From positions 14,898,001 to 14,962,000 of the forward strand of contig NC_060246.1 of the NCBI RefSeq assembly GCF_921293095.1: 64,000 nucleotides of DNA. The letters run 5' to 3'. Positions 58,672 through 62,464 of this stretch are shown piece by piece. Position numbers and translations under genes: made by a program. This stretch comes from Ischnura elegans (lineage: Eukaryota > Arthropoda > Insecta > Odonata > Coenagrionidae). Under the pieces are notes generated by a model. The model searched no databases. It saw nothing but the letters and a program-made list of their open reading frames with translations, and was not told the origin of the DNA. Every line of letters starts with the position of its first letter. Within the stretch, counting starts at the first letter, position 1.

Positions 58672-59782
58672 TTTTACTGATATTGCTTAGCTGATTTATT
58701 ATAATGTTAGAAAATAACGGTAATAACAATACTCCGGACGAATAAGATCACTATTTGCTCACGACGAACCCGTTTCAAATCAAAACATTTGCGGGTGGCG
58801 TTCTTCATACCGGATATCCGCTGATATCAAAGGATTGCGGGAAATTTAACACGCCAAGTAAATATTGGTTGAGTTTATCCGATACTCTCTGTCAGTGGCA
58901 ATTCTTTATCACAGCATATCGTAAATAATTAAAAAGAAATAAAAAAGACCCATCAGCTCTGTCATCATGCATTAAGCTGGCATTTCACCATTTATACGTT
59001 CTTTTACTTAAAACAATTTGGCGCCTAGTTGATTTCCCACATAGCCTACTGGATTCTACCCTGCACACCTTCTTGAACTAAATACCAGAACCGTACAACA
59101 ATCTTACAGAGTTCTTAATAGAATACATACTGTATGAGCTGAAATTTGAGACTGTCATATTCCAAACACTGCATATGGTCATACTGGTTAATAAACCCGC
59201 ACTTGCTATTTAAATATGATACAGTCAAAATCAAGAGTGATATAAATATGTTGAACAATGATTTTTCGATATTCATAATTGATGACAAAAGCATGAACCT
59301 ATAACTTAATAAGAACAGAAAGAATTATTCTTAATATTTGCTCAAAGTAAATTAACTGTCAATGTCACCTACACAAGAATAAAGGAATCTTATCAATTCA
59401 AATGATTGCTTGTTGCATAGTTGCAATTGTAAAAATGAACCACTTGGGCATGGTAAACCCTGATTTACACTTCTCGACTCTACCTCATCCTTTGGAGAAG
59501 GAGTCTCACAACTGCCTTCTCACTCCCTAAGTGGATGCATAGATCGATATGCCACGAACAAGCTAGTTGAAAAGTTGCAGGATCACCCTTTCCTCACAGG
59601 GAAACCTACACAACTTTTTTCACCACAAGGGTTAGGTGAGAGTTCCACTACAAGACTAATTTGCCATTTAGAAATAAAATGTATCACATATGATTCATCT
59701 ATGCTTTTCCATTGGACACCCTAGGGTTTTAACTTTAAAACAAATTCGGCCTCTAACAAGTAAAACCTGTATTATGCAGTGA
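58672..59782. promoter_or_regulatory. AIMP3 upstream region
   Basis: DNA between the AIMP3 start codon and the DUF4806 element. It must hold the AIMP3 promoter. No TATA box or repeat was recognised, and the region is AT-rich. Confidence 0.3.
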
Positions 59783-59896
59783 CCCAGTAAACACAAAATG
59801 CTGCAGATGCGCATCAGATGCGCTTCGCGGCAGCGCTGCAGCTGCGGCGAAGGCGCTGCTGCAGCGCGTCTAGCACTCCCAAACTTCCCTTTTTTG

Positions 59897-60050
59897 CATG
59901 TCATAAGCGCTGCACAAGCATGTCATACGCGCTGCACAAGCATGTCATAAGCGCTGCACAAGCATGTCATAAGCGCTGCACAAGCATGCCAGGAGCGCTG
60001 CGCTAATGTGCCACGATCGCTTCAAACGCATGTCCGAATCGCTGAAAATA
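59897..60050 (+). repeat. 22-bp tandem array, seven units
   Basis: The unit begins CATGTCATAAGCGCTGCACA. Units start at 59897, 59919, 59941, 59963, 59985, 60007 and 60029. The first four are nearly identical and the last three decay progressively. The array is subterminal in the DUF4806 element. Confidence 0.9.
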
Positions 60051-60088
60051 CATTCCTAATGTGCCACTATACTATCGCCGCAAAAAAA

Positions 60089-60275
60089 GGTAGAACGCTG
60101 AACTTTAGGCATTTGTATGAAATTCTGCCGAAGCTCCACAGGGTCGTTTCAGATATCGTTGTACTAATGATCCATTGTTGTAGTCAAATAAACAATGAGT
60201 TGAACGATATCTGACACGACTGTCGAGCTTCGGCAGAATTTATACAAATGCTTAACGTTCAGCATTCTACCATTT
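60089..60275. repeat. Strong hairpin inside the DUF4806 element
   Basis: GGTAGAACGCTGAACTTTAG at 60090 and ATTCTGCCGAAGCTCCACAG near 60121 pair with inverse copies ending near 60272, with arms of about 85 bp and a short loop near 60175-60190. It is non-coding. Confidence 0.8.
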
Positions 60276-60375
60276 TTGCGCCGATAATAGCAATCTTCAA
60301 GTACTACTTAAGTATGTGAGGGGCAGCAAGAATTAATTGAAAACACAGGTTTGCAATAAATGATTTTATTAATGA

Positions 60376-61520
60376 TTACTCTGTTTTAAGTATACATTAG
60401 AGTACTGATTAATGATAGACATAATACACGAAGACACTCACCCATAATGACACTGCATATTTTCGTTCCCATAAACTTTTTCTTCTTCATCCCCTCAACT
60501 CCAGACTTTCCGGTGAGGCAGAAGTGCTTCGCTGCTTCGTCAGTGAATACAAAATATAAAATTTTGTATACTGAGGGCTGCTCCTCATCACCACAAATGC
60601 GAGCAATTTGAGTAACCTGTAAAGAAAAATATTATGTAATCAATGGAATTCTGGTTGAAATTATCATAAAAGAATTAAACACAAATGATTGAGGCCTTAC
60701 CAAATTATTGTGGAGAGATACATCCTCTGACAGTTCCCTCTCAAACTCCTCTACATCATCCAAAGTTTTAAGAGGGAATTTCCGGTTGACGGAAATGCTC
60801 TCTTCATTCACTACAGGCTTGGACTTTAGCTCTTTCTTTAATTCTGTGAGCATGCTTAAAGCCATGCTCACCTTCCCATCTAATCTCCTGTATCTCTTTT
60901 CCCATATCTTCTCCTGAGCTTGCATGAACCCTAAAATTTTAAATGTGGAAAGGTAAGTGACCTTTATGTCAGTACTTATATAAATAAATACATGATAAAA
61001 ATACTACCATACAACTCTTCTGCTGTTGCCGGCCGCTTAGTCTCTCTTTCTTTCCCACCAGGTGCTTGCGGATCTAGTTGTTTTCCTGCTATGAGAAATG
61101 TCCATTAATTTTAACTCGTGTACTGCATAATACATCATCGCGTCAGACCATCTCGTTAGACAATCTTTTTAATATTTTACTAAAAAGGTTGGCTAACTAA
61201 AAAATTTTGAGCTGCGAACTTTTCCTGTGACATGCGTTACACATTTCCTATTTCACTATTAATGGAAACCTATATAATCAATATTTAAAAGCTTATATCC
61301 AATGGTTCCGAACATAACTACGACCACGTATGTAAACAAAAACACAAAGTCTTAAAATGTGTTTATATTCACCATGCTAGAATGCCAATTCTACCTAATT
61401 TCAAGGAGAATTGAATTTAAATTAACTAAAATTATACATTTTAAAAGAAGATGATAAATTCTTACCTATTAAGAATCCCCAAGGACGATCAACAGTTCCA
61501 CAACGTTGGCCGCCATAGAC
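60376..61520 (-). CDS. DUF4806-domain protein, spliced, carried by TIR element
   Basis: Protein of unknown function with a DUF4806 domain. In-frame exons on the - strand: about 61520-61466, 61085-61008, 60930-60701, 60616-60442 and perhaps a final 60380-60376 adding Glu and a TAA stop, with AATAAA at 60370-60365. All clear donors and acceptors are GT-AG. Text in order: VYGGQRCGTVDRPWGFLI; a charged linker (GGKERETKRPATAEELYG); a coiled-coil-like helix (AQEKIWEKRYRRLDGKVSMA); then the DUF4806 region FPLKTLDDVEEFERELSE, ICGDEEQPSVYKILYFVFTD and KKKKFMGTKICSVIM. No ATG is found in frame before the first listed exon, where a stop (61523-61521) closes it, so the true 5' end is unknown. Family members occur in many copies in some invertebrate genomes. 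The function is not known to me. Confidence 0.65.
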
Positions 61521-61787
61521 TCAGTAAACTTCCCAAGCACCCTGGTAAACAATCGCGTAGCGGAGGATTGTTGCATTGTTGCACAAACTCGCATTAGCAG
61601 CGTTCCAGCAGCGTGCTGCAGGCATGCTTTGCGCATGCGCTGTTGATGCGCTGCAATTGCATGTTTCGCCAGCACGCTGCGAAAGAGCGCTGCACAAGCG
61701 CTGTTACCGCGCTTCATTGAAACGGAAACGAACTTGCAGCTGTGAAACCCCTGTGCAGCGCTGCTGCAGCTATTCGTGTTTACTGGG

Positions 61788-62464
61788 GAGGTAAGGAATA
61801 AGGGAGTAAACTGAAAATAAATGAATGCATGATTGAGAGGAAGGGAAATTAAGATATGTACATGAAAGTTACTGAGGACTAGGTAGTCCTATATGTAAAT
61901 GTCCAGTGTTTTGTAAATGTACATTTACAAAAATCATCCCAACGAGCATTTCAAAATGTATTCTTAATTACATGTTGCCCATTTTATGATAAAAACTACA
62001 AAATATGTCCTGAAGTGAAAAAGCAAACATATAAAGCTAGAAACAAGTACTAAATACGTATACTTTCATTACACTAAATTATTTACTTATTCATAGTACA
62101 TATATTTTTCTTAAAAAAAAAAACAGCATTCAGGGCATTGGCATTTTATGAAAGCAGTAGAGTAATTCAATAGTTAACAACATTAAAAAAAGGTCGTAAA
62201 CTTTCCTGGCAAATACTATGCATTAATAAAATATTCTCAGGTTTTGCACTGGGTGAGGCTGTTTTAGGCCATATTAAAATTAATTATGGTCTTATGAATG
62301 CAATGTAAAAATTGGCCTTAAACAGCCTTATCCAGTGCCAAACCTGAGAAGATTTTATCATCATAAAAAATCTAGGCATACTAAGCCAGAATTGAAATCT
62401 TACGCTTTTGTGAATTTACGTTAATTTTTTTACACACACAAAATCATAGGAATTGCTATTACAC
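61788..62464. other. Intergenic DNA with one short palindrome
   Basis: AT-rich. 62238-62352 is a palindrome (arms about 45 bp: CTCAGGTTTTGCACTGGGTG with CAGTGCCAAACCTGAG, and GGCTGTTTTAGGCCA with TGGCCTTAAACAGCC). Otherwise nothing is recognised. Confidence 0.5.

What the first reader, a model, noticed from the sequence alone, without database searches (positions are those of the whole stretch)
59783..61787. A spliced DUF4806 gene enclosed by inverted ends of an unnamed element
Perfect 12-bp inverted ends (CCCAGTAAACAC) with matching CAGCGCTGC-rich subterminal zones enclose a - strand gene with at least four exons and a DUF4806 domain, but no transposase. Either DUF4806 is the working protein of an undescribed transposon family, or a host gene has been captured and is carried as cargo. 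DUF4806 proteins are known to be multicopy in some invertebrates, which would fit mobility. Seen: ends, exons, domain text. Inferred: mobility and the gene-element link.
Basis: partly seen in the sequence, partly recalled or inferred. Interest (0 to 1): 0.8.

Follow-up and report, generated by a model that had tools for sequence, protein, structure and literature searches.

The report
Crippled transposon carrying its helper gene
The feature is a recently mobile 2-kb piece of "jumping DNA" that has lost its cutting enzyme but kept part of a second gene; complete relatives in the same genome carry both coding units side by side, which suggests that this little-understood protein family (DUF4806) is a helper protein of a RAG/CACTA-like group of transposons.

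Summary
In detail: 59783-61787 is a discrete mobile element. At least 29 copies exist. Of 26 copies with both ends, 25 have a 2-bp and one a 3-bp target-site duplication; three insertions have empty counterparts; four copies are identical, nested inserts aside. The minus-strand gene is a spliced DUF4806 fragment (E 1.2e-11).

DUF4806 is neither the transposase nor a captured host gene. It is the second coding unit of complete relatives: C4:50721238-50726798 has the same ends, an interrupted transposase and the fuller DUF4806 gene, 96% identical to the window over the shared exons. In capped lists, 20 of 52 other DUF4806 loci have a transposase within 10 kb, all same-strand (0.07 expected). The transposase has D, D, C(2)C, H(3)H, E motifs and a RAG1/HzTransib-like fold. 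The window element is a transposase-deleted derivative, presumably moved in trans; its truncated DUF4806 frame evolves about neutrally. Inferred: full-length DUF4806, a BEN-type domain, binds the subterminal GCGCTGC arrays, as TNPA does in En/Spm.

The parts
59781..59782 (.). left target-site duplication GA
   Evidence: matches GA at 61788-61789; 2-bp duplications in 25 of 26 copies with both ends
59783..59794 (+). left terminal inverted repeat CCCAGTAAACAC (3' end of the element relative to its genes)
   Evidence: perfect inverse of 61776-61787; duplications flush with the ends in 26 of 26 two-ended copies (copies were picked by having the end motif)
59800..60042 (.). left subterminal repeat zone rich in GCGCTGC/AGCGCT
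59896..60001 (.). 22-bp tandem array (4.8 units), variable between copies by 22/44/66 bp
60070..60290 (.). 220-bp imperfect palindrome (hairpin), also present in the C4:50.72 Mb relative
60376..60380 (-). last coding exon (completes the GAG codon, then TAA); AATAAA at 60365-60370
   Evidence: splice acceptor and frame; predicted, no RNA
60442..60616 (-). DUF4806 exon, second half of the domain
   Evidence: PF16064 profile 33-87; GT-AG borders
60701..60930 (-). helical stretch plus first half of DUF4806; first in-frame ATG at 60925
   Evidence: PF16064 profile 6-33; GT-AG borders
61008..61088 (-). upstream exon, frame open into DUF4806, no in-frame ATG
   Evidence: predicted
61135..61139 (.). 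junction of the internal deletion/chimaera, with a 4-nt filler
   Evidence: left side 96% identical to the C4 relative up to here, right side 93-94% identical to the CCCTGTAAACAC subfamily from here
61466..61466 (-). splice donor of a 5' leader exon (start of transcript unknown)
   Evidence: predicted
61590..61775 (.). right subterminal repeat zone rich in GCGCTGC
61776..61787 (-). right terminal inverted repeat (5' end of the element relative to its genes)
61788..61789 (.). right target-site duplication GA

Best explanation
59783-61787 is a young, non-autonomous DNA transposon. It is an internal-deletion (chimaeric) derivative of a cut-and-paste element that encodes, in one direction, a RAG1/Transib/CACTA-related DDE transposase and a spliced DUF4806 protein. 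The derivative keeps both ends and the last DUF4806 exons but lacks the transposase, so it must be moved in trans by the transposase of a relative with matching ends. In intact elements DUF4806, a BEN-type DNA-binding domain, most likely binds the family-specific subterminal repeat arrays and helps the transposase assemble the ends, as TNPA does in En/Spm. Shown: mobility, ends, 2-bp duplications, empty sites, relatives with both coding units, same-strand linkage, transposase motifs and predicted fold. Inferred: trans-mobilisation, the splicing pattern, whether the two proteins come from two promoters or from alternative splicing of one, and the DNA-binding role of DUF4806.
For: Copies: 29 places, of which 23 span 1-2005. 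Target-site duplications: 25 of 26 are 2 bp and one is 3 bp; TA 7, AT 5, TT 4, AA 4 and five others once each. Empty sites at three insertions: L012 inside a 3-kb element versus L039/L032, L019 versus L033, L010 versus the window near 25.55 kb. Youth: L004, L005, L027 and L028 do not differ in the aligned columns (insertions against the window copy left out); median divergence 1.0%, largest 1.8%. Complete relative C4:50721238-50726798: 5561 bp, same 12-bp ends, TA duplication, minus-strand transposase in two overlapping frames (513 and 179 aa), then DUF4806 N-terminal exons, then the exons shared with the window (96% over 723 columns). A second relative at C4:123.23 Mb has a 653-aa transposase frame, a DUF4806 first-half exon (20.7 bits, E 5e-4) and a CCCTGTAAACAT end. 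C3:79.11 Mb has a 716-aa frame followed by DUF4806 (spliced stretch 27.6 bits, cut-off 25; second-half exon alone 16.0 bits), and its transposase stands at three places with 100% identity. L048 has a DUF4806 second-half exon (24.4 bits) just upstream of a 717-aa transposase frame. Linkage: 20 of 52 non-window DUF4806 loci within 10 kb, 20 of 20 same strand, 0.07 expected under uniform placement; one more locus. Transposase: D192, D270, C289xxC292, H487xxxH491, E511 in L080 numbering; Foldseek top 10 in PDB all RAG1 or HzTransib, E 1.6e-6 to 7.2e-5, next hit 0.089; sub-threshold DUF1258 and DUF4218 matches. DUF4806 as BEN subtype: stated in PMC11075544 (passage read); the 7 Foldseek matches with E up to 10, from 4 PDB entries, are all BEND3 BEN domains, each weak; PF10523 BEN E 0.027 on L048.
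Against: No RNA, protein or transposition data. No intact transposase with exactly CCCAGTAAACAC ends was found: the C4:50.72 Mb copy has an interrupted frame. 32 of the 52 other DUF4806 loci showed no transposase within 10 kb (the transposase lists were capped, but some loci may be solo or host genes). The 20 linked loci are not independent: several are near copies of each other, and the 0.07 assumes uniform placement. Some DUF4806 exons beside transposases are not matched by Pfam alone (L061:1655-1954, L048:1051-1314 and L082:3720-4034 gave no DUF4806 hit) and were assigned by alignment or by splicing. BEN similarity is weak here: a second profile search (A3) against PDB sequences found no BEN domain among its 3 matches, and the first ranked BEND6 (E 0.95) below designed proteins. 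The transposase model is of middling quality (pTM 0.60, mean pLDDT 64.2; TM-scores by query length 0.24-0.38).
Confidence: 0.86

Rival explanations
1. The truncated DUF4806 protein of the 2-kb element is itself functional, for example a repressor or a helper made by the non-autonomous copies, and is kept by selection.
For: None of the 26 copies has a stop codon made by substitution in the open exons; synonymous changes are somewhat in excess (14 of 37 against 9.6 expected, P 0.057).
Against: Total exon variants equal the neutral expectation (37 against 38.7); absence of stops has P 0.20. Three of 26 copies (L013, L016, L022) have frame-shifting indels in the DUF4806 exons, L010 one in the upstream exon, L024 a 39-nt and L017 a 6-nt deletion. 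The N-terminal exons are missing.
Confidence: 0.15
2. A host DUF4806 gene was captured as cargo by an unrelated transposon.
For: DUF4806 genes also occur without a transposase found nearby (32 of 52 non-window loci, capped lists).
Against: Four families of differing sequence carry transposase plus DUF4806 on the same strand; 20 of 20 linked loci are same-strand. The window gene matches the C4:50.72 Mb element at 96% including introns.
Confidence: 0.04
3. DUF4806 is itself the recombinase and no other protein is needed.
For: It is the only recognised coding sequence in the 2-kb copies.
Against: The half domain that was modelled is short and mainly helical, with only BEN domains among its weak matches, while complete relatives encode another protein with a DDE motif set and RAG1/Transib-like fold. 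A 3-kb subfamily with related ends has also spread although none of its 5 two-ended copies gave a tblastn match to the window's DUF4806 protein.
Confidence: 0.02

Closest known systems
En/Spm-type CACTA transposons (EnSpm)
   Same: Transposase of the C(2)C, H(3-4)H type (PMC12730594, passages); dense subterminal repeats that differ between families; two proteins, one of them (TNPA in En/Spm) a binder of subterminal repeats; deletion derivatives moved in trans (PMC2613891, passages read).
   Different: Ends CCC[A/T]GTAAACAC...GGG rather than CACTA; 2-bp instead of 3-bp duplications; the partner protein has a DUF4806/BEN-type domain and its own downstream (or, in the L048 family, upstream) exons. 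Whether it is a separate transcript or an alternative splice form, as tnpA is, is not known.
[quoted passage not shown] 2-5 bp duplications (passages read; motifs).
   Different: Termini are not CA..TG; the position within the clade was not tested by a tree because reference transposases were not available here.
RAG1 / HzTransib
   Same: Best structural matches of the predicted transposase (10 of the top 10).
   Different: Transib makes 5-bp duplications (recalled); sequence identity only 9-13%.
DUF4806 proteins (PF16064) of animals, a BEN subtype
   Same: Same domain, split across an intron in the exon pairs read here.
   Different: The four held papers that name it list it as a host protein or an expanded domain: Hydra table (PMC7642931), beetle enrichment (PMC13270666), zebrafish Chr4 genes (PMC11075544), a mosquito gene list (PMC11445403); none of the passages read links it to a transposon.

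Membership tests
Non-autonomous internal-deletion derivative of a DNA transposon | Shares ends and inner sequence with a complete element, lacks the transposase, multiple copies with duplications | tested here: met
CMCT clade of DDE transposons | D, D, C(2)C, H(3-4)H, E in the transposase | tested here: met
   the L048 row of A1 ends before the H and E, which are visible in its full frame
CMCT clade of DDE transposons | RAG1/Transib-type fold | tested here: met
   predicted model with pTM 0.60
CMCT clade of DDE transposons | 2-5 bp target-site duplications | tested here: met
CMCT clade of DDE transposons | 5'-CA..TG-3' termini (in most cases, PMC12730594) | tested here: not met
   ends are CCC...GGG
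EnSpm/CACTA | CACTA-type termini and 3-bp duplications | tested here: not met
   (one copy of 26 has 3 bp)
Transib | 5-bp duplications (recalled) | tested here: not met
Mirage | 2-bp duplications (recalled) | tested here: met
Mirage | Transposase groups with Mirage reference sequences | not testable with these tools
   no Repbase or reference transposases at hand
DUF4806 (PF16064) | Score over the curated cut-off | tested here: met
   45.2 bits against 25 for the spliced window protein; each exon alone is below it
BEN domain | Sequence or fold match to BEN | tested here: inconclusive
   only BEND3 BEN domains among 7 Foldseek matches, each weak; PF10523 E 0.027; BEND6 at E 0.95 among 12 profile matches; no BEN among 3 matches of a second profile; published statement in PMC11075544
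TNPA-like accessory protein | Binds the element's subterminal repeats and is needed for transposition | not testable with these tools
   needs a binding and a transposition assay

The most novel reading that the evidence does not exclude
DUF4806 proteins, widespread and multicopy in animals, are at root the second coding unit of a large RAG/CACTA-related transposon group with CCC...GGG ends and 2-bp duplications: the animal counterpart of TNPA, a BEN-type protein that recognises rapidly changing subterminal repeats. Many 'host' DUF4806 genes would then be live, dead or domesticated transposon genes.
Probability: 0.45. Interest if true: 0.75.

Novelty: new variant of a known kind. Interest (0 to 1): 0.6.

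Why it matters
It gives a domain of unknown function a concrete setting: a gene carried next to a DDE transposase by several families of one genome. It makes the role testable (does DUF4806 bind the GCGCTGC arrays?), it could explain why DUF4806 counts swing so widely between animals (in the PMC7642931 table, 69 and 54 in two Hydra species against 0-6 in five other cnidarians), and it adds a RAG/Transib-related element group with a likely DNA-binding partner protein.

Tried and rejected
Captured host gene: rejected because relatives with both coding units exist in several families. DUF4806 as recombinase: rejected because a DDE transposase is present in complete relatives. Selection on the truncated DUF4806 in the 2-kb copies: tested, not supported. 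Pfam names for the transposase: only sub-threshold DUF1258 (E 0.024 for L048; E 0.00017 for the C4 copy) and DUF4218 (E 0.17); PDB sequence search gave only TET2 entries at E 0.19, taken as chance. Viral structure library: no match at E 0.001 or below. The far (5') end of the L048 family and of the C4:123.23 Mb and C3:79.11 Mb elements was not found in the DNA fetched. An empty site for the window's own copy was not looked for.

Papers: searches. DUF4806 is named in 4 of 5.39 million held papers; I read one passage on it in each and none ties it to a transposon. 'BEN domain' with 'DNA transposon' gives 2 papers: PMC11075544 (passages) and PMC5704228, where the phrase stands only in the reference list. 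'BEN domain' with 'transposon' and 'transposase' gives 5; beyond PMC5704228 I saw only the listing. PMC12730594 and PMC2613891: passages. Pan et al. 2023 is not held; its content is taken from the sentence in PMC11075544. Repbase could not be searched, so a consensus of this family may already be deposited there.

Full report
WHAT IS THERE. The two 12-bp ends are perfect and are the only exact matches in the window; the first 52 bases of each end are 73% complementary. GCGCTGC is confined to the ends: 13 occurrences in two 260-bp end zones, none in the 1485 bp between. On the minus strand PF16064 (DUF4806) matches two separate exons (profile 6-33 and 33-87, each alone below the cut-off). Reading canonical splice sites gives a leader exon ending at 61466 and exons 61088-61008, 60930-60701, 60616-60442 and 60380 to the stop, with AATAAA right behind. 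The first in-frame ATG is at 60925, giving 134 aa; that frame scores 45.2 bits for DUF4806 (cut-off 25). The exon pattern is a prediction; no RNA was available.

IT IS MOBILE. A search of the window's own genome (1.72 Gb, 110 contigs, unnamed) found 29 places with at least 1.4 kb of match, 23 of them over 1-2005 at 94-100% identity; only 40 of 1823 candidates were scored, so this is a lower bound. I fetched these 29 (L001-L029) and one relative (L030). Twenty-six have both ends by motif; the four dropped are L023 (left end interrupted), L026 and L029 (right end not in the stretch, an insertion lies there), and L030. Of the 26, 25 have a 2-bp duplication (TA 7, AT 5, TT 4, AA 4, and GA, CA, TC, AC, CT once each) and L005 has a 3-bp one (TAC); the window copy has GA. 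Three insertions have an empty counterpart: L012 sits in a 3-kb element whose other copies L039 and L032 read straight through; L019 has an empty site in L033; L010 has a more diverged one in the window itself near 25.55 kb. L004, L005, L027 and L028, at four places, do not differ in the aligned columns (nested inserts left out); the median pairwise divergence is 1.0% and the largest 1.8%. So it moved recently.

COMPLETE RELATIVES HAVE TWO CODING UNITS. PF16064 has 81 exon hits (E up to 10) in the genome, merging to 78 loci, 26 of them window-type copies. Beside one DUF4806 locus (L048) lies a long frame with transposase motifs (full frame 717 aa). Searching with it gave 96 scored places out of 466 candidates, and a second transposase gave 68 of 723. 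Of the 52 DUF4806 loci that are not window-type copies, 20 have a transposase within 10 kb in these lists; all 20 are on the same strand (16 transposase first, 4 DUF4806 first); uniform placement predicts 0.07. Several of the 20 are near copies of each other, so they are fewer independent cases, and 32 of the 52 have none in these capped lists. A third transposase query adds C8:47.51 Mb. None of the 26 window-type copies has a listed transposase within 10 kb.

THE NEAREST COMPLETE RELATIVE. C4:50721238-50726798 is 5561 bp with CCCAGTAAACAC ends and a TA duplication. On its minus strand come the transposase (two overlapping frames of 513 and 179 aa, so it is interrupted), DUF4806 N-terminal exons, and then the exons shared with the window, 96% identical over 723 columns. 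The window element follows it up to window position 61135. From 61139 on it follows another subfamily (ends CCCTGTAAACAC; five two-ended copies of 3029-3286 bp; 93-94% identical over 649 bases; no tblastn match to the window's DUF4806 protein in the five), with a 4-nt filler between. It is thus a chimaeric internal-deletion derivative that lost the transposase and the DUF4806 N-terminus. A further relative at C4:123229500-123237593 has a 653-aa transposase frame, then DUF4806 exons (first half 20.7 bits, E 5e-4; the second-half exon has no Pfam hit by itself and was assigned by alignment), then an end of the CCCTGTAAACAT type; its other end was not reached. At C3:79.11 Mb a 716-aa frame is followed by DUF4806 (spliced by eye 27.6 bits, cut-off 25; exons alone 16.0 bits and no hit); the same transposase stands at C3, C6 and C9 with 100% identity. 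The window's leader exon lies at the element's 5' end, so in complete elements one promoter with alternative splicing could serve both proteins; this was not tested.

THE TRANSPOSASE. Seven transposases from this genome were aligned, the other six 30-44% identical to L080, with D192, D270, C289-x2-C292, H487-x3-H491 and E511 (the L048 row of A1 ends before the last three, which are seen in its full frame). The AlphaFold2 model (pTM 0.60, mean pLDDT 64.2) finds RAG1 or HzTransib in each of its first ten PDB matches (E 1.6e-6 to 7.2e-5; next hit E 0.089), with low TM-scores by query length of 0.24-0.38. Pfam gives only sub-threshold DUF1258 and DUF4218. PMC12730594 (passages) defines the CMCT clade by C(2)C and H(3-4)H motifs, mostly CA..TG termini and 2-5 bp duplications. 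The motifs and duplications fit, the termini do not, so I file it as related to that clade and not as EnSpm or Transib.

WHAT DUF4806 DOES. [quoted passage not shown] 2023, which is not held. Here the model of the second half of the domain (pTM 0.53) has seven PDB matches up to E 10, from four entries, and all seven are BEN domains of BEND3, each weak (E 2.2-7.6). Pfam BEN matches the L048 exon at E 0.027. One profile search of PDB sequences lists BEND6 at E 0.95 among 12 matches, below designed proteins; a second one, with the half domain, found no BEN domain among 3 matches. The subterminal motif differs between families: GCGCTGC in the window type, GGGCCAAC (7 in the last 450 bases, 0 before) at the one end examined of the L048 element. 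In En/Spm, TNPA binds the subterminal repeats and is needed with TNPD for transposition, and such repeats vary between families (PMC2613891, passages). By analogy DUF4806 most likely binds its element's subterminal repeats. This is inference.

IS THE WINDOW'S DUF4806 KEPT BY SELECTION? Among 26 copies the three open exons (61083-61009, 60928-60698 and 60613-60443 as counted) carry 37 distinct changes against 38.7 expected from the non-coding spectrum: 14 synonymous (9.6 expected, P 0.057) and no stops (P 0.20). Frame-shifting indels in the DUF4806 exons occur in 3 of 26 copies (L013, L016, L022), one in the upstream exon in L010, and L024 and L017 have 39-nt and 6-nt deletions. The test has little power, but the simplest reading is a neutral remnant.

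VERDICT. The correction is that DUF4806 is the second coding unit of a transposon group and that the window copy is a transposase-less derivative. As a kind, a deletion derivative of a CMC/RAG-related element is known; a DUF4806/BEN partner in such elements was not found described in the held papers by the searches, and Repbase could not be checked.

Noticed in passing
L051, L054-L059 (C5:0.73, C1:1.66, C8:116.9, C7:117.2, C19:120.1 and 122.1, C9:115.3 Mb): Seven DUF4806 loci at least 99.5% identical over about 3.1 kb, all within about 4 Mb of a contig end, without a listed transposase within 10 kb: perhaps a subtelomeric duplicated block.
   Followed up: no
L027 and L028, about 1846-2380 in L027 coordinates: About 0.54 kb of nested element with CCCACATAGC...GCTGTGTGGG ends, CA duplication (by eye) and repeated CTCAGAGACGTCTC-like motifs inside two window-type copies: another CCC...GGG, 2-bp-duplication element.
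   Followed up: partly
window 60070-60290: 220-bp imperfect palindrome present in window-type copies and the C4 relative; the 3-kb subfamily has a different large palindrome (by eye). Possible terminator or source of small RNA.
   Followed up: no
window 59896-60001: 22-bp tandem array whose unit number changes between copies (22-, 44- and 66-bp indels).
   Followed up: partly
L031-L040 (CCCTGTAAACAC subfamily): Subfamily that shares the right 649 bases with the window element; five two-ended copies gave no tblastn match to the window's DUF4806 protein; one search counts 142 places of the shared end type, 0 in the reversed control.
   Followed up: partly
C14 (18.8 Mb contig): Many transposase and DUF4806 copies on one small contig (by eye, not tested); might be a repeat-rich or sex-linked chromosome.
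   Followed up: no
L026 and L029: Window-type copies interrupted by other insertions, one with a GGCCGTATTAATA-type start and one that looks LTR-like by eye.
   Followed up: no
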